From Branchinecta lynchi (lineage: Eukaryota; Arthropoda; Branchiopoda; Anostraca; Branchinectidae), in contig JAKZAP010000014.1 in assembly GCA_023053575.1 (NCBI GenBank), positions 682,001 through 746,000 on the forward strand: a stretch of DNA of 64,000 bases, in the 5' to 3' direction. The translations under genes were made by a program, and so were the position numbers. This document shows, piece by piece, positions 3,583-44,324 of the stretch (positions are counted from its first letter, which is position 1; every line of letters starts with the position of its first letter). Under the pieces are notes generated by a model. The model was not told the origin of the DNA and searched no databases. It was given only the letters and a program-made list of their open reading frames with translations.

Positions 3583-3588
3583 TTTATT
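3583..3588 (-). terminator. AATAAA poly(A) signal overlapping the murQ stop codon
   Basis: On the minus strand the codons GCG AAA TAA A form an AATAAA hexamer that contains the stop codon. If used, the 3' UTR would be only about 15-30 bases. It could be chance. Confidence 0.45.
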
Positions 3589-4027
3589 TCGCAAAAGCAT
3601 CTAAAACTTTTCTAACATTTCCGTGCTCTTCCAACAGCCTATTTGCTTCCTCCTCTGGCACCCCAAGAATATCCTGAACCATCCGAGAACCCCTAGCTAC
3701 TAATTTAGTATTATTCAACATCATGTCAACCATTTTGTTCCCTTTTATCTTGCCTAGCCGAATCATAACACTGGTGGAAATCATATTCAACACCATTTTC
3801 TGAGCCGTTCCTGATTTCATTCGCGTACTGCCGCTAACAAATTCTGGTCCTACAATGACTTCAACTGGGAATTCGCAACTGGCGGCTACTGCTGAGTTAG
3901 GACAACATGTTATGCATCCTGTATTGACGCCTGATGCTTTTGCATCACGTAAGCCCCCGATGACATAAGGAGTCCGGCCGGAGGCAGCTATTCCAATGAC
4001 GGTGTCTTTCTCGGTGATGTCGTGCCC
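3584..4027 (-). CDS. murQ: murQ-like exon 3 (C-terminal half and stop)
   Basis: Acceptor TTTTCAG|GGGCAC at 4027/4028. The 444 bases encode residues 121-267 and the TAA stop. It holds the second half of the SIS domain, the GPE..SGSTR.K signature and the helical C-terminal tail, ending [10 protein letters not shown]. The open frame through the exon is unbroken. Confidence 0.96.
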   Translation of the reverse strand, partial: GHDITEKDTVIGIAASGRTPYVIGGLRDAKASGVNTGCITCCPNSAVAASCEFPVEVIVGPEFVSGSTRMKSGTAQKMVLNMISTSVMIRLGKIKGNKMVDMMLNNTKLVARGSRMVQDILGVPEEEANRLLEEHGNVRKVLDAFAK

Positions 4028-7000
4028 CTGAAAATACAGTAAATCAATAACTTATTCCAAGACCAAAGCTGGTCAGAGGCAACAAGTGGTGTATAGTCAG
4101 GTACAATATATAAACAATGAAGAATAAATAAAACCTATGGGTCAACTTACTTCTGAGAATATTTCACTACTACCAGAATTATAACGTCTCGCGAAAAGCT
4201 TTTCATACCGTTCAAGAAGAATTTGCGGTAATCGACGTTTTGGTGAGACAGCCCCGAAGCTAGAACTCAATAGAAGAGGAAGAATATGTTGTCTTGAGTT
4301 AAACGTGGTCAGTCAGTTAAATAAATCCTTTTACACACCAAGCAACACATTTCATTCATTAGCCTACCGGTTGTGTAACTATGAGCGTGTTCCACCCTTC
4401 TAACAATAGTAACTATTAGTTAGTATTTCCGTTCCAACCTCGTAAAAAGTTACTACGCTGACCGTTCCAACCTTATCGAAATATTAACTAACAGTAACTA
4501 TTTGCTTACCATGCTCGGGAGCGTAGTAATCGTGGTAACTACGCATCCCCGTAACGTGATTGGTCGGATTCGCCTGTTGCATGATATTCTGCTGGAAAAT
4601 AGAAAGATCGTTCCAGCCTTGACGGCAAAAGCCAGAATTCAAGACGTCATGCGTAGAACTACGGTAAGTAGGATGGAACGCTCTAAGTTTACTAAATTGT
4701 TTTCAAGTCAGCTCGACTTTGTATTTTCAAAATTCGAATTTCCTGCTCGGCCCGTACTAAACACAGCGTGGCATGCTCGTATGAGCTAAGCATACTGATT
4801 TACTTGATTGACCACGTTTAACTCCAGAGTAACAAAAGTTACCATTGGTAACTATTCGTAACGTTTTGGATGATTTCCATACTTTCCATGCCCCTGGTTG
4901 GAAGTTGATGGTAGAAAGTATTGTAGGAGGTTGAAGGTTGGAAAACACTCACAGAATAAGATTTCTGTGTGGAACTTAAGATGACAGGCTACATGTAAAG
5001 TGATTGGTCTTTGGGGAGACCCGAGCTTACCTTCAGGTCTTTCCATGCCTGTGCCTCATCATCTTCAGCAAACTCTACCGCCCGCCTGATGGCATCGTCC
5101 CCTCCTGCAATGAGTCCCACCACTACTCCATGAGGTACCCCATAAGTGGGAGGGCATTCTGAAGCATCGATGATCCCCAACCGACCACTTGTTCCAGCAC
5201 CTGAAAAAGTATACGTGTGTTCTGCTGTTGGTGAAACAAATAAAAGGACACAAACTGCACAGCAAGGAAGTTAAAGTGACGTCAGATCCACTTTCTCATT
5301 CTACGCTTTTGACCCGCGAGCCCAGAGTAAAGCAGAGTTTTATTCACCGAAACAAAGACGTTAAACCCAGTCCTATCTCGCTATCGTCGGCAATGACGTC
5401 TCTCGAACATGTATGTTATGTATATCTTCCTATGTCCACAGGACATACATGACAATGAGTTATGCGGAGGTTGATATAATATCGTATCAGCCTCCAGAGA
5501 GGAGACCAACCACTGAAAAGTAGAATCCGGCCAACAAAAATAAATAGATGACATCACTTCAGAAAAAAAAAACACTAACAAATAATCACAAAAAATATGT
5601 TCTAAAGCTGACAAAAAATCTTGCTTTCCCAGCCAACCTACCAAGTAGGCTACTACCAAAGAAGATTGAGTAGGCTACTACCCAAACAAAATTTCTGTTC
5701 AAAAAAGTTATAATAATCTCAGTTAATATCGGAATAACAAGTTCGAGGGCCATTCAAAAATATAAAGATAAAACATTTATTCAAACAATGTTTACAACGG
5801 ATACGTCAGCTATGATTTTTCATCAGCGATATTTCGGCCCTTCTTGGCAAGGGTCCTCGTCAGGCTGTCAATCCTCTAGATCAACTGCGGGGAAGGAATC
5901 AAACCTGTAATAAATAACTGAAGCTTCTACCGACTATAAATATCTTATTAAAGTAAATTATCTTCAATTACCACTAGAATGAAAAAACTAGTCCTGAGAT
6001 TTAATTTTTGACAACGACGCTGTTTTTGCTGCACGATTGGGTTTGATTCCTTCCCCGCAGTTGATCTAGAGGATTGACAGCCTGACGAGGACCCTTGCCA
6101 AGAAGGGCCGAAATATCGCTGATGAAAAATCATAGCTGACGTATCCGTTGTAAACATTGTTTGAATAAATGTTTCAAAGTCAGCTTGGGTTCAAAGAATA
6201 TTTAAAGATAAAATAATCAACATGCCTTGCCTTCGGCTCAGACAAGTTATTTCAATGGCCGTCTCGTTGCTATAAACCGATATCGAACTCGACGTCGGAA
6301 GTTAACCTTTATTATATATTTTCCTCCTACTCCTGTTGGATGTAACTGGTAGAATCAAGAATTAATCCGAAGCATGTTACATGGGAGGATAAGTACATCA
6401 GAAATAGGAAGGATAAGTACATGAAACTAAAGTACGCAAACTGTAAAAAGTATCTCCTACATCGGAATTCTGAATCGCCAGAATGGGAGATTTGAATCCA
6501 TGTTCGTACAGTTAAAACGGGATGGAGGATTAAAACGCTAAAATGCAAAATATTGCAGATTAAGTTATTTGAAAGCGGAGAGTATTTTGTACAGTGTCTC
6601 AGCGAAGAAAGTAGGCTAATATAATACAGATAAATTACTATAAATTTGCTTTGGTATAATAGTTATAACTTTTCGCTGCGTAGAGTCGAGCGAGACATGC
6701 GTTTAGGCTGCGCTTCATTTGAGACAGCAAAGTCATTCTTGACTTTGTCACTCATGAACAATGACTTTGTAGCTACAAAACTGTCAACAAAACGAGGCTT
6801 AAGCTCGGAGGCGCACATGTTTACCTGCCGAACAAGGTACAGTCATGGGCTTTGGAGAGTGCTGTGCGGAACACTCAGTTCAATTCTCATTCGAACCATA
6901 AAACGAGACTGTGAGCGTGTTCCACCCTCGTACCAATAGTAACTATTAGTTACTATTTCCGTTCCAACCTCACCAAAAGTTACTACGGTGACCGTTCCAA

Positions 7001-8774
7001 CCTTCTGGAAATAGTAACTAACAGTAGCTATTTGCTTACCACGCTCGGGAGCGTCGTAAGGGTAGTAACTACGGATCTCTGTCACGTGATTGGTCGAATT
7101 CGCCCGTGGCGTGATATTCTGCTGGAAAATAGAAAAATCGTTCCAGCCTTGACAACAAAAAGGCAGAATCTGTGAGTTCATGCGTAGTAACTACGGTAAG
7201 TAGGATGGAACACGCTCTGTGTAGTTCTTTTTCCCTAAGGCGTATTCTCGCCGTTCCCCGAGGACTCCTCGGGGAATCGAAGGGAACGGCGAGAATAGAG
7301 AGTCACTCCACGCGGACTCCGCGTACAGAAACAGCGAGAACACGGGGAATGCTTCCAAAATCGATTTAGTTCGAATAAGGAATATGCAGTTGACGAAATT
7401 AGTCTGGATCCACTTTATTTTTTGTTTTGTTTATTCTGATTATTTTTAATAATTCTACATTGCACCAATACCAGCAAAAACTGATTCCCCTCCGAATCTG
7501 AAAAACTTTATGATGATGGGGATGATAATCGGAGCATTCCCCGTCCGTGGGGACTCGCGAGAATACGGAGAGTGAGTCCCCGGGACAAACAAAAACGCGG
7601 GGACTCCTCAAGTGGAGTCCTCGGGGAATGGCGAGAATACGCCTCTAGTCTTAAGTTATTTTGCCACAGGTCGCATGTCATTAAGCTCTGCTTGGCACCA
7701 AATGCGTCATGACGACAGAGTTACTATACTCTGGAATGACCTTCTCTCAGCCAGTTTCAAGCTGTGTCTATCCGTAGCAAAATCGCAGATACCCAAAGAT
7801 AAACCTTTTCAGCCTCCACTTTCAGACTGGTCATTTAAAGTGCGAACACACGATGAGGATTTCACGGCCGGATTTCCTGCACTTTCATCATCAAGTTGAA
7901 AAAATTTCCACTTTTACATATGGAAGTGATGATGGTGGCAAAAATCCGGGCAGGAATTCCAGTCCGGGAGATTCCTATCCTGATCGTGTGTCTGCATTAT
8001 TAACAACCTTGATACAATAATTCACTTAATATCCATCAAACTGCAACGCCCCTCTTGACTGGAAAACAGAGTTTTGCCCGTGACTGATAGCATGGTAGCC
8101 GAGAGGGGTTTCTGGGGCGTGTACAGTGTACCGATGCTCCGCGGTAAACCCTTTACCAAGACCATCCAAGGGTAGGTATTTTACTGTAGAAAAAGTGAAC
8201 AATAATGTAATAGAACTTAAAGAGTAAAACTTTATGTGTTTTGTCTTAAATGAAAAGAAACCGGGACTAGACTAAGCTGCCCAAACTGACTAACCCGAAG
8301 GCATTAAAACTCCTTATGAAACTGGAGTAAAGACCTGAACAATACCTTATAAACCACGACACGACCTAACGCTAATACCGTCACTCTGACCAGTGTGCAA
8401 GCACTCCGAACCACAACTGACGGTTTAGCTAAGCCGTGCGTCTCCTATAAGGCTGGGTGAAATTAGATTCGAAGCTCATGGCAATATTTCAAGGAGCCCT
8501 GGAATTTTCCCAGAGTGTGCGGGCTACTCGTTACAAAACCCTTTAATCTTACTACGTCCAACCCCCAACACATCTAATCTGTACCTATATAGAAGAGTCT
8601 CCCGCCATCTGCCATCTGTGGCACCATCGACTCCACCAACGCCTCTATCTGGTCTAAAGCCTTTTCAACAGCACCAGCAACTGTTTTGTCTTCCTCGTTG
8701 ATTCCCATGAGCAATTGTCGAGTGGTCTTGAGTTCGAGGTTTTCATGTTTTCCAGATGCTTCGGTAATATTCAT
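3584..8774 (-). CDS. murQ: N-acetylmuramic acid 6-phosphate etherase (MurQ-like), three exons, complete
   Basis: Coding exons 8585-8774, 5031-5200 and 3584-4027 join in phases 1 and 0 to give 267 residues, close to bacterial MurQ length. MurQ cleaves the D-lactyl ether of MurNAc-6-phosphate to give GlcNAc-6-phosphate and D-lactate. Visible features are a SIS sugar-phosphate fold, [15 protein letters not shown] at residues 57-71, [10 protein letters not shown] at 75-84, AVEFAEDD at 104-111, [11 protein letters not shown] at 135-145, and the MurQ/GCKR signature [18 protein letters not shown] at 180-197. Glu78 and Glu109 fit the two catalytic glutamates of E. coli MurQ (Glu83, Glu114) at a constant offset; this is inference. 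The sequence is most like Bacteroidetes MurQ. Introns full of MITEs make it a resident eukaryotic gene, not contamination. Its upstream same-strand neighbour is the kinase gene. GCKR, the animal relative, is about twice as long with two SIS domains, so it is a poorer match. Confidence 0.95.
4383..4684. mobile_element. MITE with GAGCGTGTTCCA termini, copy 1 (murQ intron 2)
   Basis: Begins GAGCGTGTTCCACCC and ends GGATGGAACGCTC, so the termini are inverted. It is about 300 bp and nearly identical in layout to 6913-7217 in the same orientation, including CTGCTGGAAAATAGAAA and ACGGTAAGTAGGATGGAAC. Confidence 0.85.
5031..5200 (-). CDS. murQ: murQ-like exon 2 (SIS active-site core)
   Basis: Acceptor TTTTTCAG|GTGCTGG at 5200/5201, donor CTGAAG|GTAAGC at 5030/5031. 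Supplies residues 64-120, including [19 protein letters not shown] and AVEFAEDD. The 170 bases run from phase 1 to phase 0, which matches both neighbours. Confidence 0.95.
5795..5871 (-). ncRNA. Hammerhead-ribozyme-like motif (Penelope-associated), left arm
   Basis: On the minus strand: ACAGC (stem I), CTGACGA core, stem II CCCTT/AAGGG, GAAA core, an imperfect stem III (GCU..AUG with CAU..AGC), GUAUC, then GUUGU, which can pair with ACAGC. Core residues are intact, but one extra C before the stem I return strand departs from the consensus. Ribozyme activity is inference. Confidence 0.45.
6076..6152 (+). ncRNA. Hammerhead-ribozyme-like motif (Penelope-associated), right arm
   Basis: Reverse-complement twin of the motif at 5795-5871. 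CTGACGA is at 6082-6088 and GAAA at 6110-6113. Stem II pairs CCCTT with AAGGG. The downstream GTTGT pairs with the upstream ACAGC using one G-U pair. Confidence 0.45.
6913..7217. mobile_element. MITE with GAGCGTGTTCCA termini, copy 2 (murQ intron 1)
   Basis: Direct-repeat partner of 4383-4684. Ends GGATGGAACACGCTC, giving a 12-base terminal inverted repeat (GAGCGTGTTCCA). It is followed within 20 bp by another inverted-repeat element. Confidence 0.85.
7236..7647. mobile_element. Inverted-repeat element with AGGCGTATTCTCGCC termini
   Basis: The left end AGGCGTATTCTCGCCGTTCC is mirrored at the right by GGAATGGCGAGAATACGCCT. The arms also share TCCCCGAGGACTCC and GGAGTCCTCGGGGA. It is about 410 bp and non-coding. 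Confidence 0.75.
7648..8584. other. murQ intron 1, nothing recognised
   Basis: Contains an open stretch at 7612-7899 (+) that resembles no family I know and partly overlaps the inverted-repeat element before it. I treat it as chance. Confidence 0.4.
8585..8774 (-). CDS. murQ: murQ-like exon 1 (N-terminus, start codon)
   Basis: Encodes residues 1-63 and the first base of codon 64, starting [10 protein letters not shown] and running to GGRLFYI. The donor is G|GTACAG at 8584/8585. The ATG sits only six bases inside an acceptor (CTTTTAG|TCAACAATG, boundary at 8780/8781), so the upstream part is either a 5' UTR exon, a trans-spliced leader site or, in phase 0, a fusion exon. The start agrees with the start of bacterial MurQ. 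Confidence 0.93.
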
Positions 8775-9239
8775 TGTTGACTAAAAGACAAGAAGATGAC
8801 TGCACACCCAATACAATCGCTAAAGGCAACTATAGTTGCATTTTGTTTTATGCTGTTTCGGTGTCGTTTCACTATAGTTTGACAGACGTCTGTTTTAGTT
8901 TTGTCAGTACAGTATATGCAACTTTTTATTTGCCCATTCCACATATTGTACTTTCATAACTAAAACAAAAATACGTCAAACTACAGTGAAACTACACCAA
9001 CTACATAAACAAAAACACAGCCTATGTGACAGACAGATATTTTGCACCAAGTTTGTTAGGTAACGTCACCTAACTAAAAAAAAACAACACGTAAATAATC
9101 AGGTCAATTCTCTCATCGAAAGCTTCATTATATAATGTCATAAAAGAAGGATCTATTCGCAAGCCTACTGAACATATTTGAAGAGCTGCCGTGTTCCTCC
9201 CGCAGTAGCTACCTATAGTTGGTGCATTTTTACCAGCTT

Positions 9240-9772
9240 TTGAGAAAGAAAAATACCTCTATGAATGAACGAATGAATTTATTCCCAATAAAGCCCAAGG
9301 GCCATGGCGGGAAACATAGCACAATAACAAAAACAAAATATCATACACTCCAACAACGAACCACAAAATCAACTTTTATAAAAATAGTTCACGGTGGGCC
9401 ATAGCTAGCTTCAGGAATCTACCCAGCCTCCGGATCTCACCAAAACACTTACTTCCCATACTTGAAACCAAATCCCTTTCCTCCCAGGCCTCCCGACCAA
9501 ACACTTCCTTTCTTAATTCTTTCAAGTCCTCGCAATAACATATCAAATGTACCGCATCCTCTCCTTCAATACCACACATTGGACAAAAATTAGGAGCAGT
9601 ACCTTTCCTATCTCTACCAATATAATTTCTCTGCATCCCCAACGGAAGAGCGTCCACCCTAAGACTCACCATCCACTTCAATTCTGCCCCCTCCCCAACT
9701 TAAAATATAATTCTTCTCCCCATGTCTCTTTGGCCATACCATACAACTTCAGAGATTGGTGCTTTGATACAC
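9240..9772 (-). mobile_element. LINE 3' fragment with CCHC zinc-knuckle C-terminus
   Basis: Minus-strand frames 9376-9681 and, after a frameshift, about 9690-9760 read WGEELYFKLG, then VDALPLG, YIGR and a CPMCG-x10-H-x4-C zinc knuckle. The same order occurs at 32745-33267 (GEEVYFKAG, ADSLPLG, YIGR, CPMCG). This is the C-terminal tail of a non-LTR retrotransposon polymerase. The 3' UTR runs to about 9240. The piece lies between murQ and the kinase gene. Confidence 0.7.
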
Positions 9773-9779
9773 CCCCATG

Positions 9780-10015
9780 CCACCTATGGCGACCTGCTGT
9801 ATCGGGTGGTTCCAAGATCTGAGACAAAATCGATGCAGGGGGTTGCCCCCCCCCCCCCCCGAAACATGAAAAAATAACGATTGTTATAGGCTTTTCCGTC
9901 TGATCTACGTGTTTTTTGTACTTTTTTGTCCGACCAGCAGGCAATAATCCCCCTCCCCCCGAAAGGCACCCTGCCCCCCGAAATAAATTCCTGGATATGG
10001 GCCTGCATATCCCCA
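9780..10015. repeat. Low-complexity repeat with poly-C tracts
   Basis: Contains a long C homopolymer at about 9847-9860 and further C-rich runs near 9950-9980. It resembles the homopolymer-rich parts of other DNA elements in the window, but I could not define its ends. Confidence 0.4.
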
Positions 10016-10917
10016 TGTCACGGAAATTAATAATATAGATGGCGCTTTACACAAGGGACTTGTACCGTGACCAATACCATAAACAATTTTTCGAATGTAA
10101 TTTAGAAGTCTAGGACTCCCTTCTCGGAGCCACGTAGACAAACCAGGGATATTTAAGGTCATCTTTTCTGCTTGCAGTTTAGAAAAAATTTTACCGTCGA
10201 GAAAAAAGACACCTAATCATCCATTTGTGAACTAATGTAATTGTTCCGTGACAATAAGCTGAAAATATTCAAGCTATTTATATTTTTGGTATTGTTCTTA
10301 GAGGTAAAGAAACTATCACCTGATAATCCACTTCGAAAATAAAAGACAGAAAAGAGTGAGCTTACATTTCCTGCGGATAGAATTCGGCCATTTGTAGCTG
10401 AAAACGGGTAATCATGTCTCGCGGAATTAATTAACTACTCACAGAAGAACGTTACCGTGACCTGGAGGACTACTTCCTCCAGAACCACTCGCTACCTAGA
10501 CATGCCACAGATTTTCGCAGGAGATGGGGTTACATTCATTTTTCGTCGAAATCGGCGAGTAGATTGCTACGAATCATCACGCTTACTGAAAGCACAATAT
10601 TATTCAAACCGCACATTATTGAATTCTTCGTGAACCCAAAGGCCAAGCAGGCCTTGCGAAAAGACTTACTTGCCACAGCCTCAGTCAAAAGAGGGCACGA
10701 CCAATGGTTGTGCGAGGCTGATTGATCGATTATCCTCTTACAGTAGACAAAACACTTTTACAAGTCTCTCTCGGGTAGATGTAAGTAATTTCTTGGCCCG
10801 TCGCACGGGCTTCTATGAACGAATAAGATCCGATTCTGAATCGTCAGTCATATGCCTCTAAGATCGATAGTTCGAAGTAAATAAGAAGAACAACAAAATC
10901 ACAACTTATTTACGAAA
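10016..10917. other. Spacer between kinase and murQ genes, no confident feature
   Basis: Holds a possible 32-base mini-exon on the minus strand (10366-10397, TTTTCAG acceptor, GTAAGC donor). Its length does not connect the kinase reading frame to the murQ start, so it is not called. A good isolated donor lies near 10665 (minus). Confidence 0.35.
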
Positions 10918-13900
10918 CTAAACATACGTGTGATAAGCAATCAGTCCTCTGATCGGATTGCGCTCAATGAGATCAACGATATATCCCTTCTTGCCTGCGG
11001 CTTCTCTTAGCTGGTCCTCAAACTCAAAAGCAACTGATCCAACAAAGCGAAGAGGAAGTCCCTTCCCTCCTAGAAAGGGATCGATGCAGCCGGAGAAATA
11101 TTCTTCAAAATTTGACTCCACGAGCTTTCTAATTTCTAGATTGCCAATATGTTCTCTCATGAACGGAGCAAACGAGGCGAGGTAGCGGTTCGGAAAATTC
11201 TCCCTAAAAAGGACAAAGCATTCAACCAAGGAACAGACAAGTGATTGCCATCTGGGCTTTCTAACAAGAAAGGAGGGGAAATACGGTCGTAACAGCTACA
11301 ATTTCAAGACAAAATAAAAAAGGAGCAGCTTGAAAGAAATTGAATCTAAAGAAATCAAATGGGAACGTATTGGCAAAAGTTCTTTATCAACTTTATAATT
11401 TCTCAAAGGTGGCTTTGCGCTTTCAAAAGACTTGCAAAAGAGGGCCTAGTAATTCGGAAAACACTTCTGAAAAGGAAACAGCGATTTGATTAGACCGGGA
11501 GATGTTGCAAGTGTTAAGAGGGGCCACGAAGAGGAGGGCAAAGCGACTGTGAGGAGCAATAGCAAAATAAAAAAAAACGATTATGCCAGGCGACAATATG
11601 TGCGAATCGAGCCCTAAATGAGCGTTACCACCCCAAACTTCTGCATTCACACGCGTCTGCGAAACTCAATACTCTATCCGTATGATGGCAAATAAAATGG
11701 TATAGACTAACCAATGGGAAATTCATACACAATTATAGAAGAAGACCAAAGGTTTCGATGGGATCCCACAAATATAACATTTGATTCAAACAATTGGGTC
11801 ATGTATCGCCAGTCAGTCTTCGTCAGATTCCTTGAACATGTTTACTGTTAAAGTAAAATTCAAAAGTGGATTCAGCATGTCTCCTTGCCCCGATACCGAA
11901 TCTCTTATCAATTTCGGAAACAAATTTGAGCTTCGACCAAATTTCCAGTTGGAGCCGAATTCGTGACGAACCGTTTGTCCAGCAAGAAAACTAAGTTCAG
12001 ATATGGATTCAGTGGACCTACTTACCCCCTCAGTGAATATCTTATTAGCTTATTAAACATAGGCTACATGTTTTTTACCGTAAACTCGAAAAGAAAGATC
12101 AATTAGTTCGTAAGATACGAACTTGACCTGTAATTTACCAGCGACTCCTCATTGAACAACATCCTCGCTTAAACAACATATTTCTTCGTTTGAACATTAT
12201 ATATCAAACCCCTTCGACCTTCAATTACACTAGATCTCTCTGACGTCCATAGAATAAACAAATGAATGTCGTCATCAGAGCTATACCGGTTTGAGAATAA
12301 GGTGGTAGGGACTGCAATAGCCGAAAATTGGTGGACAAACATTGAGTCTCAATAGCCGGCATTTGGTAGCCATCCTGAATTTGTAAATTATTTGACACAT
12401 TTTCTGAACCTTTCTTCACTGTTTTATCCCAGTACTGGAGAAGATGTTTAATCAGAAAGAAGATCCTGAAGGTTTGAACTTTCACATCCTATTGGTCGAT
12501 TTGCACCAGCGAGTCAAAGACTGGCTTCCTATTTGGTCAGTACTGCCAAACTAGTTGCGTTTTTGTTCGACCTTTCACTCACCTTTTCGACGGCTTTTTA
12601 CTTTTTTTGCGTTTTCGTAAAATGGTCCTAAGCACTGTTTGACAATTTCCCGTTTTTGCCAAAAAGGCAAACGCCGACTTTCGCCTTTTCCCTCGGCTTT
12701 TTGCAAAAAGGCAAACTTGGTAGGTGACCAAGTTACGCTCTCCTTTTGGCTTTTTGCCTCGCTACTTTAGCCAGTTTATCTCAAAATCCAATAAAAGAGG
12801 AATTTGATTCAAGATGAAAATCAGTATTTCGAGACTGTCTCGGATTTTAAAGATGAGAAATTTGTAGTGCATGTAAAATACCAATAAAACGGCATTTGTC
12901 AAAATAGAGAAAAGTGAAAAGTCCTTGGTAGTAACGGCAACTTGCTAAAACGCGAGAATGTTAAAAAAGGCATGAAAACGATAAAAAGCCAAAGGTGAAA
13001 AGGGAAAGGCAAAAGCCGAACACAAACGAACTATTGACTCAGATACTGTTTTCCGTGGGCGCAACCTCCTCTTTACAAGGTTTCGGGTATAAGCAGCCGC
13101 TCAATGGCTAAGGAGCATACTTGCGGATTTTTGACGCAATGGATGGGAGGTTAAGTTCTTATCCATTGTCAGTTCTTCGTTACTCACGCTTCACGTAAAG
13201 CAGCGTCTGGTGTTCTCTCGGGATCTAATTAAATACTGATAAAAAGGCTCATGTATACTTCAACAAGGAACGTGCTATATCCCCCCCCCCCCCGCACATG
13301 GGAGAACCAAAAGACTGGTCTGCAAGATTTGATACGAGACTCATAGAACAGTTGACGCGGGAGATTACGCTCGCGAGAGGCGTAAAACTAGCTAACTTAA
13401 AGGTCCCCTCGCATTATTGACTCTTCAACTTACAGTAGTTTAAAATATTTGAATACTTTAAAACTAGACTATGCTTTCAACTCTTTCAACACTTAACCCA
13501 CGGTTTTTGCTGTTTTAAGCCTTTTCTGAGCTCAATTGACTTGTAACGAAAACGGGAAACAACATAACCGTTTTTTCTGATGGAAAAACTTCTCGCAGAA
13601 AACCGTCGACAGCGTGATACACATCGAAGGGCTAGTAAGAAAATCCCCGTGGATGTGTTAGAGGGGTTGGAATTTAACGTACAAAATTAGAGTCTCCGGG
13701 TTTCGAAACATATGGAGTGATTATGGAAGTAGGTTGCGTTAACATTATAGCCTATAGGTAAGACAGGTCCTTTAAGTAATGATAATCGTTAGGAAATTGG
13801 AGGGCACGCAAGATTATATGCAGATGATAAAGCTCTATCGTATAAACTGTATGAAAATTCAGTCGTCTATGTGTGGAAACGTAAGCTCTACCTATCCGTT

Positions 13901-16409
13901 AACTACGCGAAGAGGGACTCGTTAATGATGGCGTCACGTGAAGAGTCTGACGCAAAGATGAGAACAGTGGACAGTGACAAAGCAACGCCCTAAGCTACTG
14001 TACTGTAGCGATCGGAATACTCTTTATGACTAAGTCCAAAGGCACGCCAGTGATCCTCAGGAAGAAGAAGTAAGCGTCTCCGTAACGGCTAAAACTCAAA
14101 TTCTGTGTCAAACAATCACGGCGATCTTTGGGAGCAGCTGTGACACTCCTTCTGCCTTTCTGCCGATAGGTACCCGGAGAGGCCGGAGATATTGCATCGG
14201 CAATTAGAGATAGTCATCAAGAGTATACCGAATGAGCACAGCTTCGAATGAGTTATTACTTGAAACTTGAATTTGGGCCCAAGTGTTAGGATCTCAAAGC
14301 CTCTGTCGACTAAAAGAAGAACAGCTACTCTTCTTAAAATATCCTTCGTGCTATAAATAATTCACTTAAATAAACACATTTTTAGAGTTTACTGAAAAGG
14401 CACCTGCTTTTTGCATCTAATAATTAAATACACTGAAATATATTGACTAATAAGGGATTTTACGGTTTTTCATCCAGGCTTTGTAATAACATTGCTGCTT
14501 GCACGACAAACCAAAATACGTCAAGGCGCGGAGAATTTGAATTTCAACAAAGGCATGTCCGATGTGTCCTCACGGGGAGACGATGACGTTAAGATATGCC
14601 TTGCAGGAATCGGACATTTGTATTTTAGTTCTCAGCAATGGCCTATATTTGTAGCTGGTAAACGTGGAGGTACAATCACATAGAGGTACTACAAATCCGA
14701 AAGAATAAGTTCGTCTGATAACTGACAAACTAGGTAACGCATTTTTATCGGGTTTTCAGGCCTATTCAAGTGAATAAGTGATGAGTAACTAGACTGTCGA
14801 GTCTCAGCCCTATTCGTTCAACTTTAAAATCATAGAAGATTTGGGTAGGTTCGTCCTCACGTTTCTCCAACGTCCAGCACGCTAGCTCTGTGGTGCTATG
14901 CGAAACAGAGGGCATACTAAGGTCTTAGTTGTAGGAAAGCAACCATTCAGTATTTACGGAACATGATCGCGGATTTCTGCTTGGAACAAGGCCGAGGCAT
15001 AGGTTCTTATAATTATCTGTTCTTGGTCTTGACTGATAACCCCAGTCTGGTCGTGGGTTGTTTTCACACAATTGCTGTTTTCAATTACGTCTCACGTAGT
15101 GAACTCACTTTCGTTGTTGCCACGTTTCTTTGACGGAACCTCTGACAATCGGCAGCAAAACCCTGTGACATTCTGACGCCCACAAAATTGGTTATTTTTT
15201 TTTCAGTTTCAACGAAAAACTCTTATATTTTATAAGGTTCCAATTTGCTCTTGTAAGAGGAGTTAATAGGCGCAAAAAAAACAAAATCCTTTTCACAAAA
15301 GAGTTGCCTTGGAATTGCCCAAAATACTTTGAAGGCGCAGAATTTGTGACATTTTTGGCATGCGTGAGATTTCCAGTGACAAATTTTTCACAGCTGCGAA
15401 TCTGGAGAGAAGTCGAAAACCTGTGACAAATCACAGAATTCTGCGACCAGTGGCAACCGTGCTCACTTTCCCCGTCCTTTCCGAAACTAGCTGGGCGCAA
15501 AAACATCTGGAAAGCGAAGCGAGTTTTAGCCGGAGTCGCAAAAAAGCCGGCGCTTAGATTAGCGGAGCTTTCCAAATCGCCAAAATCGCCTTTATCATTC
15601 TGGCATAACCGCCCAAATCGCCTTTATGAATTCTGGCATAAACGCCAGAATCGCCTTCATGAATTCTGGCATAAACGCAGTAAAAATAACACGTTCGTTT
15701 ACACTTTGGCGAGCGGTAGAAAACCTGCAGAACTGTGTAAGATTGTGCAATGCAAGTCGCCAAGTCTGTCGAATCTTCCGATCTTCTTGGTAACACTAAG
15801 ATTACTGATACTGAAATACTGATTACTACATTGTCAGAAGTTTACTTACTTGTAAACTCTCCGGAGCACCTCAGACGCATCCACACTACGACAAAACTCT
15901 TTCAAATCTTCAGCTACAGCAAGAGGCAGCTGATTCCTCAAAAAGCTTCGCAAAAGTTTTCTTCCAAGATTTCCGCCACTTCCTTCGTCCCCCAAGTAAA
16001 GTCCTAAGGGATTGACACTCTTCACTATCTCCCCGTTCCTGCAGTATCCAGTATTCGATCCAGTACCTAAGATGCAAGCAATCCCTTCCTTTTTACCAAA
16101 CAAACATCGAGCCGCTCCAAGCAGATCACTTTGCACTTCGATCGCTCCTCCTTCCAAAGTCGATTTAAGTAAGTTTTGAACTCGGCTTTGGTACTCTGGC
16201 AAGCCGCACCCCGCGCCGTAGAAATAAATCTGGTCGGCTTGTAGCTTCTTTCCGGTTAGAAAGGCTTTAACAGAGTTGACTATTTCAAATATTTCACTGT
16301 CTGATTGATAAACAGGATTTATCCCAGGAGCGTCGTAGTAAAATGTTTCTTGGGGAGTCCAGACTGCCCACTTACTTTTCGTCGAACCGCTGTCAGCAAC
16401 CAGAATCAT
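10918..16409 (-). CDS. BadF/BadG-family amino-sugar kinase (NAGK/MurK-like), two exons
   Basis: Exons 15850-16409 and 10928-11203 join in phase 2. Reading on to the first in-frame TAG gives 281 residues, the usual length of Bacteroidetes BadF-type kinases. The fold is ASKHA. Visible motifs are the phosphate loop DSGSTKSKW at residues 6-14, YGAGCG at 64-69, SDLLGAARCLFG at 94-105, the second phosphate loop ILGTGSN at 113-119, LGDEGSGG at 139-146, and FPNRYLASFAPF at 190-201 across the splice. Family members phosphorylate GlcNAc and, in MurK of Clostridium acetobutylicum, also MurNAc. With MurQ next door on the same strand, MurNAc/GlcNAc 6-phosphorylation is the likely role; substrate choice is inference. 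It resembles Bacteroidetes proteins more than the usual animal NAGK. The exact 3' end is uncertain: a strong donor (AC|GTATGT, at 10927/10928) lies 10 bases before the TAG. Confidence 0.93.
10928..11203 (-). CDS. Kinase exon 2 (C-terminal lobe)
   Basis: Acceptor TTTTTAG|GGAGAA at 11203/11204. It completes a Lys codon, then reads ENFPNRYLASF, LRFVGSVAFEF and NPIRGLIAYH, the last matching the natural C-terminus of bacterial family members. It either splices at AC|GTATGT or reads on three codons to TAG at 10918-10920. Confidence 0.92.
11230..11740. other. Kinase intron, nothing recognised
   Basis: No repeat or coding signal recognised in this part of the 4.6-kb intron. Confidence 0.4.
11741..11965 (-). 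repeat. Family A repeat, truncated copy
   Basis: Starts GACCAAAGGTTTCGATGGGATCCCA, the conserved outer end of family A (see 19164-20607) in minus orientation, and continues with the TTGAACATGTTTACTGTTA-like and GGATTCAGCATGTCTCCTTG blocks before diverging. Confidence 0.75.
11966..12559. other. Kinase intron, nothing recognised
   Basis: One short block near 12196-12230 (CAAACCCCTTCGACCTTC) recurs at 44845-44870, so part may be a degraded repeat. Confidence 0.35.
12560..13028. mobile_element. Foldback element with GTTTNTGTTCGRC termini
   Basis: The left arm (GTTTTTGTTCGACCTTTCAC, then CGGCTTTTTACTTT) is mirrored loosely at the right (AAAAAGCCAAAGGTGAAAAG, then GCCGAACACAAAC). The interior is full of TTTTTGC and GGCAAA runs. 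Non-coding. Confidence 0.55.
13396..13776. mobile_element. MITE with TTAA flanks and AGGTCC termini, copy 1
   Basis: TTAA|AGGTCCCCTCGCA at the left and ACAGGTCCT|TTAA at the right indicate a TTAA target duplication, as made by piggyBac transposases. A near full-length relative is at 26776-27168 and a truncated one at 35703-35830. They share CTTCTCGCAG and CCGTCGACAGCGTGA. It lies in the kinase intron. Confidence 0.75.
14465..14830. repeat. Interspersed repeat family C, copy 1
   Basis: Shares ordered blocks with 35095-35455 (CACATAGAGGTACTACAAAT versus CTCATAGAGGTACCAGAAAT; AGTAACGCATTTT or GGTAACGCATTTT; AAGTGAAT followed by GGTAACT; CAGCCC) and with 47690-47900. No terminal repeat or coding region found. 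Confidence 0.65.
15582..15680. repeat. Tandem repeat, about 32-bp unit, three copies
   Basis: Three consecutive units of AATCGCCTTTATGAATTCTG plus GCATAAACGCC with small changes, just downstream of the donor of kinase exon 1. Confidence 0.85.
15850..16409 (-). CDS. Kinase exon 1 (N-terminal ATPase lobe)
   Basis: The ATG at 16407-16409 begins MILVADSGST, exactly where bacterial homologues start. It lies five bases after a possible acceptor (TTTAAG|GTTTCATG) preceded by a T-rich tract. The donor is TACAA|GTAAGT at 15849/15850. The 560 bases end in phase 2 at residue 186. Confidence 0.94.
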
Positions 16410-19163: not shown

Positions 19164-20607
19164 TTGGGATCCCAAAACGTAAGTGGAGGGATACCTATGA
19201 CATCGCAAAAGTTGTCCGTCTGTCCGTCCGTCCGTCCGTCCGTCCGTCCGTCCGTCTGTCCGTCCGTCTGTAAGCACGATAACTCTCGAAGGGAATGAGA
19301 TATTTTGATGAAACTTGGTGTGAAGGTTCGTTGGGTCGTCGGACCAGTCAAGTTCGTAGATGGGCTTTGTAGCTCTACATTTAGGGGTGGGGGAGGGGAT
19401 TCAAATTAAGGGACAAACAAAATATTTTGAAACAGCTAATGTGATAGTCGATTATGGGGTAAGAAAACATGCTGAACACGATGGTGAAAACCATTTTGTC
19501 ATCGGACAAGTATTTCGCCCGGAATCCGGCCAAAGCCGGAAAGTTTGTTGAAAGTAAAAGTTTTATTTGAAGTTGATTAGATGTTCGATTTAGGGGTAGG
19601 AAGACATGCTGAAGACGATGGTGAAAATTATTTTCTCGACGGACAAGTGTTTTGCCCGGAATCCGGCCCAAACCGGAAAGTTTGTTGAAAGTAAAAGTTT
19701 TATTTGAAATTGATTAGATGTTCGATTTAGAGGTAGGAAGACAGGCTGAAGACGATGGTGAGAACTATTTTCTCGATGGACAAGTATTTCGCCCGGAATC
19801 CGGCCCAAACCGGAAAGTTTGTTGAAAGTAAAAGTTTTATTTGAAGTTGATTAAATGTTCGATTTATTGGTAGAGAGACATGCTGAAGACGATGGTGAAA
19901 ACTATTTTCTCGACGGACAAGTATTTCGACCGGAATCCGGCCCAAACCGGAAAGTTTGTCAAAATTAAAAGTTTTATTTGGAGTTGATTAGATGTTCGAT
20001 TTAGGGCAAGAAGACATGCTGAACACTTATGTGAAAACAAGTTTCTACCCGGACATGTAGTTCGTCCGGAATCCGGCCAAAACCGGAAAACCGTTGGAAG
20101 TCAAAGTTTTATTTCTAGTTGATTAGATAAGCGATTTAGGGGTAAGAAGAGATGCTGAGTCCCTGTGTGACAATCATATTTTACCCGGACATATAGTTCG
20201 ACCGGAATCCGGCTTGAATCGGAACATTTGTTATAAGCTAAATTTCTATTTGAAGTTGATTAGATGTTCATTACTGGGGAAAGAAGATACCCTGATTTCG
20301 TCTTTGAGCTTTCTTTTTTCGCCGGACAAGTAGTTCTGGAGTTCGGCCGGAACCGGGAAATTGGCAGAAGTGGCAGGAAGTTTTCGTCAAAACAGATATG
20401 ACTTATAGGGGTAAACACACATGCTGAATCCAAATCTGAACTTGGTTTTCTCAGGTGATTAGCTATTTGGCCTTAATCTGTTTCTGAATTTTAATTGTAA
20501 AAATGTTCGAGGAGTCTGGCGATGACTGGATCTGGCTAAGACAAGACCCAGTTGTCTGGATCAGATATTGAATTTTTGGGATCCCATCGAAACCTTTGGT
20601 CTTGTTA
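19164..20607 (+). mobile_element. Family A repeat element, fullest copy
   Basis: Modules in order: TTTTTGGGATCCCAAAACGT; a (CCGT)n tract at about 19210-19270; GATAACTCTCGAAGGGA then GATGAAACTTGG; a TAGGGGTGGGGGAGGGG block; a tandem array; TGGATCTGGC and TTGTCTGGATCA; and a terminal TTTTTGGGATCCCATCGAAA ending CCTTTGGTCTTGTT. GGGATCCC occurs at both ends. Other copies: 29443-30630 (+), 37186-37918 (-), 48513-51236 (+, interrupted), 60037-60735 (-), 62979-64000 (-), and a scrap at 11741-11965. No transposase is visible, so it is probably non-autonomous; its class is unknown. Confidence 0.85.
19541..20240 (+). repeat. Internal tandem array of family A, about 137-bp unit
   Basis: AAGTTTGTTGAAAGTAAAAG recurs at about 19541, 19678 and 19815, and a variant at 19951, so the period is 136-137 bp. 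Each unit contains GATGTTCGATTTA, AGACATGCTGAA, GACGGACAAGT and CCCGGAATCCGGCC. Further decayed units follow. Confidence 0.9.
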
Positions 20608-29442: not shown

Positions 29443-30630
29443 TTTTTGGGATCCCAAAACGTAAGTGGAGGGATACCTATGACATCGCAAAAGTTGTCCG
29501 TCTGTCCGTCCGTCCGTCCGTCCGTCTGTAAGCACGATAACTCTCGAAGGGAGTGAGATATTTTGATGAAACTTGGTGTGAGGATTCGTTGGGTCGTCGG
29601 ACCAGTCAAGTTCGTAGATGGGCTATGTAGCCCTACATTTAGGGGTGGGGGAGGGGGTTTAAATTAAGGGGCAAACAAAATATTTTGAAACAGCTAATGT
29701 GATAGTCAATTATGGGGTAAGAAGACATGCTGAGCATGATGGTGAAAACTATTTTGTCATCGGACGAGTAGTTCGCCCGGAATCCGGCCAAAACCGGAAA
29801 GTTTGTTAAAAGTAAAAGTTTTATTTGAAGTTGATTAGATGTTCGATTTAGGGGTAGGAAGACATGCTGAAGACGATGGTGAAAACCATTTTCTCGAAGG
29901 ATAAGTAGTACGCCCGGAATCCGGCCGAAACCGGAAAGTTTGTTAAAATTAGAAGTTTTATTTCGAGTTGATAGTTTGATAGTCGATTATGGGGTAAGAA
30001 GACATGCTGAGCACGATGGGGAAAATCATTTTGTCATCGGGCGAGTAGTTCGCCCGGAATCCGGCCAAAACCGGAAAGTTTGTTAAAAGTGAAAGTTTTA
30101 TTTGAAGTTGATTATATGTTCGATTTAGGGGTAGGAAGACATGCTGAAGACGATGGTGAAAATCATTTTCTTGACGGACAAGTAGTTCGCCCGGAATCCG
30201 GCCAAAACCGGAAAATTTGTTAAAAGCAAAAGTTCGAGTAGATGACAGATTAAGGGGTAAGAAGGGAGGCTGAGTCGGTTTATGACGATGTTTTTTTACC
30301 CGGACATATAATTTTTCCGGAATCCGGTTGTAACCGGATTTTTTTTTAAGTCAAACTTTTATTCAAAGTTGATTAGATGTTCTTTATAGGGATAAGGAGA
30401 TACGCTGGTTTTGCTTCTGTATTTTTTTTGTTTGCTGGGCTAGTAGTTCGCTCGGAAATCGGCAGGAAGTCCCGGTCAGTATCGTCAAAATAGATATGGT
30501 TTATAGAGGTATATCTGAACTTGGTTTTCTCTGATAATTAGCCTGTCCAAGACTGGATCTGGCGAAGACAAGACTCGATTGTCTGAATCAAATATTAGAT
30601 TTTTGGGATCCCATCGACACCTTTGGTCTT
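29443..30630 (+). mobile_element. Family A repeat element
   Basis: Same module order as 19164-20607, from TTTTTGGGATCCCAAAACGT to TTTTTGGGATCCCATCGACA and CTTTGGTCTTGTT. The (CCGT)n tract is shorter, and the 137-bp array is partly duplicated as a longer two-unit block, in which GATAGTCRATTATGGGGTAA alternates with GATGTTCGATTTAGGGGTAG. Confidence 0.88.
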
Positions 30631-39756: not shown

Positions 39757-42700
39757 CTACTCTTCTTTTCTCACTCTTAATTTTTTTAAACTCTCCCATT
39801 CTGTCCTAACCATCATCATAATTTTTTCTAGACTATCCTCTTTACCTCTTCCTTTCCAACTGTAATAACAAAATGTTCCTATTAAAAAAGCTGTCGTCCT
39901 GTTCTCAGGTGTTATCTTACCTTTAACAATATCCTTGTAGAAAATCTGTTTATCAATCTTCCATTCTTGGCTATATCTGTTTATCTTTCTTAAAAGAGTT
40001 TCTAATTCTCCCACTGTTTTCTCCTTCGCCTTGCACTCTATCACGAAATGTCTTATTGTTTCAATTTCACCGCAAAATGTGCACCTCCCTTGTGTTGATG
40101 TAGGCGAGATTCTGTGTTTCCTTTCTTCAGTGGGAAGAATATTATGAATTTGATAGAGCATGTGCTCTTTCACTCTTGGCTTTAACATAGACGAGTGTAG
40201 TAGCCGTGCTGTTATCGCAAGCTCTTCTATTGTTGTTTGGCCATCAGTCACGATTTTTATCTGGGGTACATCCATGCTTTCTTTATAATATATTTTCAGT
40301 TCTTCCTTTGCTATTATTTTTGTTTGGAAATTTATTAAGCCTTTTTCTTCATTTTCTTTTATCTTTGCAAAACCTTTCTTGAGTTGCTGAGGACATTTTC
40401 TTGGATCCAGCTTCCATGACATTAGCACTGACCTTTCTCTGCCCATGATTCCTTCGGCTAGCGCTCTTACAAACATCTCTTCAGCTTTGGATTGAAGGTG
40501 GGTGACTTGCAAACCGCCTTCTTCTTTGCATAGGTACGAGTCGCTCATCTTAAGTTTTGGTGGGTACTTACCTTGCCATAGAAAACCATATAAGATCTTT
40601 TCTATTTTCTTCCTTGTTGTTTTTGTCATTTGGGATATATTGGAAAAATACCATACGAGCGGAAGACAGTATTGGTTAATGTACTGAGCTTTTTGGAAAA
40701 TCGTCAGTTTCCGGTTTTGCCCATACTGTACTGAAGCAATTAGATTGGTCGTAACTTTCTGCCAGTTTTGCGCTTCCGTCTTCTGCCATGTTTTCTAAAA
40801 CCAGACACCAAGTATCCTAATTTCTTGTGATATTCGTAGCCCGTGTAAGCTCGGTGCTTTGATGCTGTGTTCTTCCTCTGTCAAAAGCAGAACTTCACAT
40901 TTGTCACCGTTCAGTTTTAAGTTAAAGATTTCGCAGTATTTCGCAGCGCCTAGAATTGCATTTTGATGGTCACTATCGTCAACGGTGAAAGTGCTTAAGT
41001 CATCAACGAAACCTTTGACCTTCAAAGTTTCGTCTATCATTTTAATTCCTCTGAGTTCTTTTTCTAGATATTTTAGGAGAGGGTCAAAATATAGCTCGAA
41101 AAGTAATAAGCTTAAAGGGCACCCTTGCCGTAGACCTGTAGCTGCTGTGAATGTTTCCGAGATTACTCCCGAAATTGCTATGACTAGAGTTGGGTTGGTG
41201 TATAATATTTTTATCCACTCTGTAAATTTGTGGTTAAAACCGTAGAATTCCATGACGATGAACAGCAGGACTCTCCTGATTCTGTCAAACGCTTTTTGTA
41301 TGTCAAATGCTGATAATCTCATTCGAAGGTTCTTTTTCCCTTTCTTTTTTTGTAGATATAGAAGTAGGTCACGTATGCAGTTAAGGATGTCCGATGTTTT
41401 TCTTTTATCGACTCCTCCTCTCTGGTTTTTGCTAAGGATTGTTGGCAATACTTCCTTTAGTCGGTTCGATAGCACTTTAGAGAGAAGCCTGTAGTCGCAT
41501 TGCGTCAGTGTTACAGGCCTCCAGTTATTTAAATTTTCTAGGTCCCCTTTTTTGGGAATGAGTTTTATAACTCCTGTCGTGTTCATCTCACCTTTCTGGC
41601 AGAGCACCGCGTTAAATAGTGAACTCAGGACTACTGCAAAACCTGGCTTGAAAAGTGGGTCTTTAAATAGCTCGTAAGGGATTCCGTCGAGTCCTGGCGA
41701 CTTCCCATTGTGGGTCTGATTTATAGCATTCAATACTTCTTCAGGTTGGATGTTTCTACATTGCGTTCTGTTTTACTCGTTAGTGACTTAATTAATGCAA
41801 ATATTCGATAGAAAATCTTCGAGCTTTTCTACGTCTTCCGTCGTTTCCTCCTGTTCTTTCTGTAAAACCTCTTGAAAAATGATCGGGCTTCCTGCAGTAT
41901 CTCTTCTTTCCCTGTAACGTACCTTCCTGATTTTGTTCTGACCCTAGATATACTGGCTGCTTTCATTTTCTTCTTTTCTTTACAAATAATCGTCGTTGTT
42001 AACTGTTCGTTTTGAATTAACTGGTCAAGTTTCGTTCTTACCTTGATTCCACTTGCTATTTTTTCATTTATTTGCTTGATCTCATTCTGTACTTCAAAAA
42101 ACTCTTCATTTACTTCCTTGCCGTTGTTTATCTCGTGTTTCAGTGCGTAAAGCACCTCGTGAAGGTGCTCCAAGTGTTTTTTCTCCATCCCATATAAATC
42201 TTTCGATATCGTTTTTGCATTTTCCGTTATTTTCCTTTTCGCTGTGATTTCCCAGAACGATACTATATCTTCATTTGGTAATAATTTCATCTCTTCCACA
42301 AGGCCTGATATAACTTTACGCATTTCTTCATTCTTTAGGACATTTGTATTCATTTTCCATATAGTCTTTTTTGTATTCTTCTTTCTATTTGTTCGCCTTC
42401 TTTAAAACTAAGAACCACTGCGAAGTGATCAGATAGTGGTGTGTATAGGTGTTGAATTTCGGTCACCATGGACATCGGTTCTTTTGCTGCATACATTCTG
42501 TCAAGTCGGGAGCCTCCCCCTTCCCTTTCCAGTTTACCCTTGTGTAATCTTTCGTTCCCTTTCTTTCCTCCCATACGTCGTGTAGATCAAGACCCTTTAC
42601 TAGTCTTTGTAATGCCTTGGAAGATATGTCACTCGTTAAATCAGCGTCTTTTTTATTTATGACGCAGTTAAAGTCTCCCATCAGAATAAGCTGTGCCTTA

Positions 42701-43056
42701 TGGATTAAGAAAGGAGCCAGCTCTCCCTCGAAAAAATCTTCTCTTTCTTTTCTCTTACTGGACCCAGAAGGTGCGTAAACATTAACGAACTGAATATTAT
42801 CAATTTGACACTCTATTATCCGGCCTTTCCCGTCCGTCCTTACGTTCTTTACATTAATACCTTTTCTGTATATTATTGCAACGCTTCCTCCTCCAATTTC
42901 CGTATTGGTTTGAAACAGAAAATCTGGCCGTAGATTCTCTAGATGGTCTGTGTCCGTTTCTTGCGCGAAAGCAACATCAATTTGTTCATTTATTAAAAAC
43001 GTCTTAAAAGCTTTCTGTCTGGCTTTTTGTTTAAGGCCGTTTAGGTTGATCGTCAT
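39757..43056 (-). pseudogene. LINE ORF2: AP endonuclease plus reverse transcriptase, disrupted
   Basis: The start at 43056 overlaps the end of ORF1. Endonuclease motifs are NLNGL, QETD, VYAPSG, MGDFN, then after a frameshift RLDRMY and SDHFAVV. Reverse transcriptase motifs are GKSPGLDGIPYE, LIPKKGD, WRPVTL, AFDIQKAFDR, GLRQGCPLS and the catalytic FVDD near 41000. An in-frame TAG at 40795-40797 precedes the C-terminal region, which carries CTFCGEIETIRHFVIEC. The role is target-primed reverse transcription. Breaks lie near 42460-42570, 41830-41760 and 40795. Confidence 0.9.
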
Positions 43057-44324
43057 TACTTTTTTGTTTCAGAACGTTCTCCTTCTTGTCTGGTCTCAAT
43101 GCTTTCTTCATCGCTTTCGCTTCGAAATTCCACGTTTTTGCTACCCAGAGGGGGGACGTTTTTGTCTTCTTTGCCAAGATAGAGTGCTGCGATGAGTTCG
43201 TTGAGTCCAGATCATCTGGTTCTTCAAATACTGTTTTTTGCGTTCCTTCTGGGCTTTTTTGGAAGAGATGGGAAATACCGTCCACCATTTTCTCCATGTT
43301 TGTGATGATCCGTTCTCCAACAGACTGACCTTCTTGTACTGTAGTGTCCTCAGTCTGTTTGCTCTTCCTTTCAAAAATTCTTTTCATGCCTCTTGTGACG
43401 ACTCCTTCATTTGTGGTGCATTCCATCTCCTGGTGGTCCATCTCATAGCAGCCATCCTGGGAGCTAACAGATAGGTTCCGTCGGCCCAATCTTTTCTGCT
43501 CCCTTTCCCGATCATTCGTTTCCCTAGAGTTCCTGTTTTTCCTCTTTTCTTCTTCCCGGAGCTGATTTTTTAGTTTTTCGATCTCCCGTTGAATGATAGG
43601 TTCTTCGTACTTCTTGCTGCTTATTGCATCCTCCAAAGTTGGAAAATCTTCCGCGTTTTGTGTATTTGCCGGTTCTTTTCTTTCCGTGAACCTTTCTGTT
43701 CACTGACCTTTTTTGAAGAATGGCGATTGGTTGCAGTCCTTTGCGATATGGCCTTGTTCATTGCATCGTCCGCATGTCTTGATCTGGCCATCATACCATA
43801 CGCGAACGCGCATGCCATCGATCTCTAAGAAAGATGGGATCCCTTTCGTAAGGTGCATGCTTGCGGAGATTCGAGTTTTTGCAGTCTCTATAAAGCCATC
43901 TCCTTGGAAGAAATCCCTCTTGCAGTGAACTACCCTTCCATATTTTTTTTAGCTCTTGGCTTACCATCAGCGGGTCCATCTCGAAGGGGACTCGATCGAC
44001 TTTTACCATGGTTGGTCTGTTTTCGCAGTCCTCAGTTGGTACTTTTGTTGTTTTCCCCCCTTTCTTTAGGAGCAGCGTGCCCTCCTCCCTTTGCCGAAGA
44101 AAATTTTGTAGGGCACCATGGTTTGCAAATTTCACGTACACGCATCGTTTGAAAAATAGACTCGACGAGTCTATACCGACAAGCTCTTCCTTTTGCAGAC
44201 CAAGGCTTTTTAGCCATCGGTGAACCTCAAGCTCATCCGGTATTTCCGCCTCCTTGAAATTACTGAAACTGAGAAAAGCCGTGTTCTTCCTCGCGTATTT
44301 GAACTCACCGTTTACCGCGCTCAT
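43031..44324 (-). pseudogene. LINE ORF1 (RNA-binding, CCHC and coiled coil), frameshifted
   Basis: Starts at 44324 (MSAVNGEFKYARK). The frame slips at an A8 run at 43943-43950, continues through MRVRVWYDG and a CGRCNEQGHIAKDC knuckle (C-x2-C-x4-H-x4-C), slips again at the A6 run near 43709-43714 and once more near 43640, and ends in a charged, coiled-coil-prone Glu/Lys/Arg-rich tail to 43031. The product would bind element RNA as a chaperone. At least two of the breaks lie at homopolymers, so sequencing error cannot be excluded. Confidence 0.85.

What the first reader, a model, noticed from the sequence alone, without database searches (positions are those of the whole stretch)
3584..16409. 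Bacteroidetes-like MurNAc salvage pair (sugar kinase plus MurQ etherase) as intron-bearing genes in an animal genome
Seen: a BadF-type kinase and a complete MurQ, same strand, kinase first, each interrupted by introns with proper splice sites and matching phase, and with animal transposons in those introns. Known: in Bacteroidetes such as Tannerella forsythia, a kinase (MurK) and MurQ act in consecutive steps to turn MurNAc into GlcNAc-6-P, and the genes are neighbours. Inferred: the pair was acquired as a block from a bacterium, has gained introns, and lets the animal use peptidoglycan sugars from food or symbionts, or dispose of them. All expected MurQ and kinase motifs are intact, suggesting it is under selection.
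Basis: partly seen in the sequence, partly recalled or inferred. Interest (0 to 1): 0.88.

Follow-up and report, generated by a model that had tools for sequence, protein, structure and literature searches.

The report
Bacterial cell-wall sugar genes in crustacean
A crustacean related to the brine shrimp carries two neighbouring genes that look bacterial in origin but now have animal-style introns, and they look able to turn a sugar from bacterial cell walls into one the animal can use.

Summary
On the minus strand lie a 281-aa kinase (2 coding exons) and a 267-aa MurQ (3 coding exons), both intact, split by three GT-AG introns on a 23.1-Mb contig.

For both, the best-scoring listed hit is Artemia franciscana (kinase 52%, MurQ 73%). 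Host gene UTP6, about 113 kb away, is also nearest to Artemia (65%; Daphnia 40%). All three Artemia proteins are listed on a contig of 50,985,676 bases. So the host is an Artemia relative, and the pair probably sat on this chromosome in their common ancestor. MurQ nests within Bacteroidota. Of 80 bacterial MurQ loci, 13 hold the kinase, 12 of them directly upstream.

Best reading: a Bacteroidota murK-murQ operon, acquired, given introns and kept by selection, converting MurNAc to GlcNAc-6-P. The history is well supported; expression, activity and benefit are inferred. An ant murQ transfer is in print (PMC13320244); my searches found no animal kinase-murQ pair. The genome also holds a Bacteroidota-like AnmK gene lacking a conserved loop.

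The parts
15850..16409 (-). Kinase coding exon 1 (ATG at 16409), phase 2 at its end
   Evidence: tblastn of bacterial kinases
11204..15849 (-). Kinase intron, 4646 bp, GTAAGT..TTTTTAG
   Evidence: repeats
10918..11203 (-). Kinase coding exon 2 with stop TAG
8585..8774 (-). MurQ coding exon 1 (ATG at 8774)
5201..8584 (-). MurQ intron 1, 3384 bp, phase 1, GT-AG
   Evidence: repeats
5031..5200 (-). MurQ coding exon 2
4028..5030 (-). MurQ intron 2, 1003 bp, phase 0, GT-AG
   Evidence: repeats
3584..4027 (-). MurQ coding exon 3 with stop TAA
16415..16431 (-). 3'-splice-like tract ending 5 nt before the kinase ATG
   Evidence: such tracts precede 168 of 8099 ATGs locally; consensus match only
8781..8797 (-). 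3'-splice-like tract ending 6 nt before the MurQ ATG
   Evidence: consensus match only
10922..10927 (-). Donor-like GTATGT in the last kinase codons (hypothetical splice to MurQ)
   Evidence: no transcript evidence
3583..3588 (-). AATAAA overlapping the MurQ stop codon
   Evidence: consensus match only

Best explanation
A Bacteroidota operon of two adjoining genes, a BadF-type MurNAc kinase followed by MurQ, entered the germ line of an ancestor shared by this animal and Artemia, gained introns, and has been inherited vertically since. Proposed mechanism: digestion of eaten or symbiotic bacteria frees MurNAc (inferred); the kinase phosphorylates its C6 hydroxyl (inferred from conserved active-site residues); MurQ removes D-lactate to give GlcNAc-6-P (inferred from MurQ family membership); GlcNAc-6-P enters the animal's amino-sugar pool, for chitin or through a NagA-like deacetylase (inferred; NagA-like exons found). 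Shown here: gene structure, Bacteroidota ancestry of MurQ, a single MurQ locus, matching Artemia proteins, and conservation that tracks functional columns.
For: Intact exons with GT-AG introns on a 23.1-Mb contig. Best-scoring listed hits for both proteins are Artemia, listed on a contig of the same length as Artemia UTP6, whose homologue lies about 113 kb from the pair here. MurQ tree: window + Artemia 98/99, inside Bacteroidota 100/100. Kinase tree: window + Artemia 100/100. Bacterial order kinase then MurQ, same strand, in 12 of the 13 loci (of 80) that hold both; Parabacteroides annotated so too. Window and Artemia agree at 54 of 65 highly conserved kinase columns and 113 of 121 MurQ columns, but at 29 of 113 and 19 of 54 variable ones. 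Kinase residues D95, N119, D141, S94, P134 and L135, which match the MurNAc-binding pattern of PMC10465942, are present in both animals. NagA-like exons on C11.
Against: No transcript or enzyme data. The N-acetyl pocket is altered: MurK F34, F35 and F137 correspond to V33, Y34 and L137 here (V, L, I in Artemia), while position 137 is F or Y in 128 of 131 bacterial rows; position 133 is N, against S in 98 of 131. In Artemia the DxGxT Asp is Glu. The kinase stem is 1.09 against 0.27 for MurQ, and the two trees do not point to one donor. No MurNAc transporter (MurT) gene was looked for genome-wide. Adjacency in Artemia is unknown. Only 13 of 80 loci nearest in MurQ have the kinase next to it. The AnmK gene of the same genome lacks a loop present in the 23 other genuine rows, which would fit decay of the pathway.
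Confidence: 0.72

Rival explanations
1. Acquired and retained as above, but the job has changed: the kinase acts mainly on GlcNAc, muramyl peptides or another amino sugar, or the pair chiefly disposes of immune-stimulating muramyl compounds rather than feeding the animal.
For: Altered N-acetyl pocket in both animals; long kinase stem; human NAGK is reported to phosphorylate muramyl dipeptide (PMC10465942, passages).
Against: MurQ keeps the family pattern, and the lactyl-ether side of the kinase pocket stays open: P134, L135, S94.
Confidence: 0.2
2. The genes came separately, or independently in this animal and in Artemia, from related bacteria, and were not moved as one operon.
For: Different stem lengths and no shared donor for the two trees; adjacency in Artemia not tested.
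Against: Adjacent, same order and strand as in bacteria; each animal pair forms one clade; UTP6, kinase and MurQ of Artemia are listed on contigs of one length.
Confidence: 0.06
3. Contamination or misassembly, or an old eukaryotic gene (GKRP for MurQ, NAGK for the kinase).
For: Pfam labels the MurQ domain GKRP_SIS_N; the animal has no other support here such as RNA.
Against: Introns and a 23.1-Mb contig; bacterial MurQ 250.6 bits against 69.9 for GKRP; among the 7 PDB sequences matched by the kinase none is human NAGK; MurQ inside Bacteroidota.
Confidence: 0.01

Closest known systems
Tannerella forsythia murTKQ operon (MurK, MurQ)
   Same: Kinase then MurQ; kinase of the same family (E 1.4e-49) with matching catalytic residues and lactyl-ether pocket.
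   Different: Animal host, introns, altered N-acetyl pocket, no MurT gene seen beside the pair; activity untested.
murQ transferred from Spiroplasma/Mollicutes to Camponotini ants (PMC13320244, passages read)
   Same: A bacterial MurQ gene conserved and vertically inherited in an arthropod.
   Different: Other donor phylum and host; the passages mention no kinase partner. The authors report expression, which I could not test here.
Vertebrate glucokinase regulatory protein (GKRP/GCKR)
   Same: Related SIS fold.
   Different: GKRP chains in the PDB are 619-638 aa and score 69.9 bits or less, against 250.6 for bacterial MurQ.
Naegleria cell-wall digesting enzymes (PMC9928731, one passage read)
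   Same: A bacteria-eating eukaryote listed with AnmK and a GKRP homologue.
   Different: A protist; that passage names no MurK-MurQ pair.

Membership tests
MurQ (MurNAc-6-P etherase) | Score over the curated TIGR00274 cut-off, full-length SIS etherase | tested here: met
   321.7 bits against 302, residues 9-257
MurQ (MurNAc-6-P etherase) | Catalytic Glu and Asp (identity of the residues recalled) | tested here: met
   E78, D110 and D111 invariant in the 5-row alignment; which of them are catalytic is recalled, not tested
MurQ (MurNAc-6-P etherase) | Cleaves MurNAc-6-P to GlcNAc-6-P and D-lactate | not testable with these tools
   needs an enzyme assay
MurK (Bacteroidota MurNAc kinase) | Catalytic Asp95, sugar-binding Asn119 and Asp141, DxGxT phosphate motif | tested here: met
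   all present in the window protein; in Artemia the motif's Asp is Glu
MurK (Bacteroidota MurNAc kinase) | Room for the lactyl ether: small residues at 94 and 133-135 | tested here: inconclusive
   S94, P134, L135 fit; 133 is N here (S in MurK, P in Artemia, R in the active paralogue K1058)
MurK (Bacteroidota MurNAc kinase) | Aromatic N-acetyl pocket (F34, F35, F137 of MurK) | tested here: not met
   V33, Y34, L137 here; V, L, I in Artemia. I therefore say 'works like MurK', not 'is proven MurK'
MurK (Bacteroidota MurNAc kinase) | Phosphorylates MurNAc at C6 | not testable with these tools
   needs an enzyme assay
BcrAD_BadFG (PF01869) | Score over Pfam's gathering cut-off | tested here: not met
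   28.8 bits against 31.5; many close bacterial relatives also carry no Pfam label
GKRP/GCKR | Two SIS domains, about 620-640 aa | tested here: not met
   267 aa, far closer to bacterial MurQ
Bacterium-to-animal gene transfer | Nested among bacteria in a tree | tested here: met
   MurQ 100/100 with Bacteroidota rows; the kinase tree has no outgroup, so nesting there is not tested
Bacterium-to-animal gene transfer | Lies in an animal chromosome, with introns and host neighbours | tested here: met
Bacterium-to-animal gene transfer | Shared by a related animal | tested here: met
   Artemia proteins P0001 and P0121
Bacterium-to-animal gene transfer | Absent from other animals | tested here: inconclusive
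   Artemia is the only row named as an animal in the best 120 of each search; most rows are unnamed and lower hits are not listed
Bacterium-to-animal gene transfer | Transcribed and spliced | not testable with these tools
   no RNA data held

The most novel reading that the evidence does not exclude
This crustacean lineage runs, or once ran, a nearly complete bacterial MurNAc-recycling pathway of Bacteroidota descent (kinase, MurQ and AnmK), and the kinase-MurQ pair is still read as an operon-like unit: splicing the donor in the last kinase codons to the acceptor before the MurQ ATG would give one message in which the kinase stop overlaps the MurQ start (ATGA), as in three of the bacterial operons seen here.
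Probability: 0.12. Interest if true: 0.88.

Novelty: new variant of a known kind. Interest (0 to 1): 0.74.

Why it matters
Transfers of single bacterial cell-wall genes into animals are known. A two-step MurNAc pathway moved together, given introns, and kept since before this animal split from Artemia would mean a filter feeder can recover cell-wall sugar from bacteria, perhaps for chitin, or disarm it. Artemia carries the same two genes and is easy to rear, so the question can be tested directly.

Tried and rejected
Contamination was rejected by introns, a 23.1-Mb contig and the Artemia matches. GKRP and animal NAGK as the true identity were rejected. More transferred neighbours: 1051 ORFs of at least 100 aa from the 80 bacterial loci, searched against 274 kb of host sequence, matched only the five exons. 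Naming the species: the two Branchinecta genome papers are not held. Kinase paralogues elsewhere in the genome are untested: the protein query did not complete, and the PF01869 scan did not find even the window's own kinase. Scans for peptidase S66, PGRP-type amidase and i-type lysozyme did not complete. The first AnmK tree held a wrong ORF in row L153, replaced. P0002 (internal duplication) was left out of the kinase sets. No structure was predicted. No Artemia DNA was at hand, so dN/dS, Artemia introns and adjacency are untested. L132 and L133 were used only for the contig length.

Full report
What is there. On the minus strand a kinase gene (16409-15850, 11203-10918; 281 aa) is followed by a MurQ gene (8774-8585, 5200-5031, 4027-3584; 267 aa). 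Both frames are open and the three coding introns are GT-AG. MurQ exceeds the TIGR00274 cut-off, and a scan of the whole 575.7-Mb assembly with that model finds only these three exons. The kinase matches Bacteroidota sugar kinases of solved structure, including Tannerella MurK and K1058.

Where it is. The window is C5:682001-746000 of an assembly of 216 contigs, and C5 is 23,102,945 bases long. Parts of all three introns are repeated in the surrounding 274 kb; none of the five exons is. Exon GC is 0.456 and 0.476, intron GC 0.400 to 0.417.

Who the host is. A recognisable host gene, UTP6, starts at about C5:572616, some 113 kb from the pair; it has an open frame of 652 codons, of which 591 were read. 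Its best hit is Artemia franciscana at 65%; the next two are Daphnia at 40%. Artemia is also the top hit for the kinase (52%) and MurQ (73%); in each search only the 8000 candidates sharing most words were scored and 120 listed. All three Artemia proteins are listed on a contig of 50,985,676 bases, which I take to be one chromosome. That fits one old insertion and vertical descent. The Artemia genome paper PMC11492255 (passages only) does not use the words 'horizontal' or 'etherase' in its main text and puts Artemia about 385 million years from the other branchiopods it compared; the split between this host and Artemia is not dated here.

Origin. MurQ tree of 74 rows (window, Artemia, 45 of 80 locus MurQs, 20 of 119 other hits, 7 from plasmid records): window + Artemia 98/99; 68 rows with every named Bacteroidota sequence 100/100; an 8-row clade with six unnamed environmental proteins 95/80. 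The bootstrap had not fully settled. Kinase tree of 56 rows (window, Artemia, Parabacteroides, 10 of 13 locus kinases, 43 of 118 hits): window + Artemia 100/100 on a stem of 1.09, no outgroup; a 70-row quick tree agrees at 99. The 80 bacterial loci carry Bacteroidota-group titles, counting one Rhodothermaceae and one Chlorobiota MAG. Thirteen hold the kinase. In 12 it lies upstream on the same strand: in 9 from a 20-base overlap to an 11-base gap, in two 105 and 250 bases away, and in one my script found no ATG. In L036 it lies downstream. The Parabacteroides record has an annotated 'ATPase' ending three bases before murQ.

Selection. In columns at least 90% conserved among the bacterial rows (131 kinase, 199 MurQ), window and Artemia agree at 54 of 65 and 113 of 121; in columns under 50% at 29 of 113 and 19 of 54 (Fisher p 9e-14 and 1e-15). 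The 100 kinase and 92 MurQ columns between were left out of the test. If there was one transfer, this constraint acted after it. The bacterial rows are the nearest hits, which may sharpen the contrast.

How it probably works. In Tannerella, MurK makes MurNAc-6-P and MurQ converts that to GlcNAc-6-P (PMC10465942: abstract, passages and part of section 8; PMC5790795: passages). The window kinase keeps D95, N119, D141, S94, P134 and L135, but has N133 and a less aromatic N-acetyl pocket. MurNAc is the likeliest substrate; GlcNAc or muramyl peptides are the main alternatives. NagA-like exons on C11, each below the family cut-off as expected exon by exon, offer an outlet for GlcNAc-6-P.

A third gene. 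The genome also has an AnmK gene on C3 (23.4 Mb), 340 aa in one coding exon, 210.7 bits on PF03702. AnmK was found in 19 of 20 Bacteroidota genomes searched. The host copy falls in a 12-row AnmK clade at 100/99 whose other members are Bacteroidota, as a long basal branch that the program warns about. It lacks the GG(I/F)xN hairpin that the 23 other genuine rows of the alignment have. By analogy with sugar kinases this loop should hold ATP phosphates (recalled), so the protein may be inactive or changed.

Transcription. The kinase and MurQ ATGs both follow a 3'-splice-like tract; 168 of 8099 ATGs in the region do. The AnmK ATG follows one too, judged by eye. This suggests 5'-UTR introns or trans-splicing. 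After the kinase stop the first AATAAA or ATTAAA comes at +1635, and a donor-like GTATGT in its last codons, if joined to the MurQ acceptor, gives a stop-start overlap. This is a hypothesis.

Prior art. A murQ transfer from Mollicutes to Camponotini ants is published, expressed in eight species, and called unreported before by its authors (PMC13320244, passages). My ten searches of an open-licence library listed no paper that I recognised as reporting a MurNAc kinase with MurQ in an animal, or these genes in branchiopods; most listings were seen only as titles and abstracts.

Noticed in passing
Host genome C3:8311541-8312536 minus (L131, 2514-1492): A Bacteroidota-like AnmK gene (340 aa, one coding exon) that lacks a GG(I/F)xN hairpin found in the 23 other genuine rows aligned.
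   Followed up: partly
window 10922-10927 and 8781-8797: A donor-like site in the last kinase codons and a strong acceptor-like site before the MurQ ATG; joined, they would give an ATGA overlap.
   Followed up: partly
window 39757-43068 minus: Large open frames that look like a non-LTR retrotransposon with endonuclease- and reverse-transcriptase-like parts (by eye, no family search).
   Followed up: no
window 19448-20295, 29700-30234, 48766-49047, 63342-63738: Tandem arrays of similar units of about 135-137 bp in several places.
   Followed up: no
window 5790-6170, in MurQ intron 1: A pair of long inverted repeats around a short centre, like a small inverted-repeat transposon (seen by eye).
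   Followed up: no
Artemia protein P0001: The first Asp of the kinase phosphate motif is Glu in Artemia.
   Followed up: no
Host C11:8214905-8241420: Four NagA-like exon matches, presumably the animal's own GlcNAc-6-P deacetylase.
   Followed up: no
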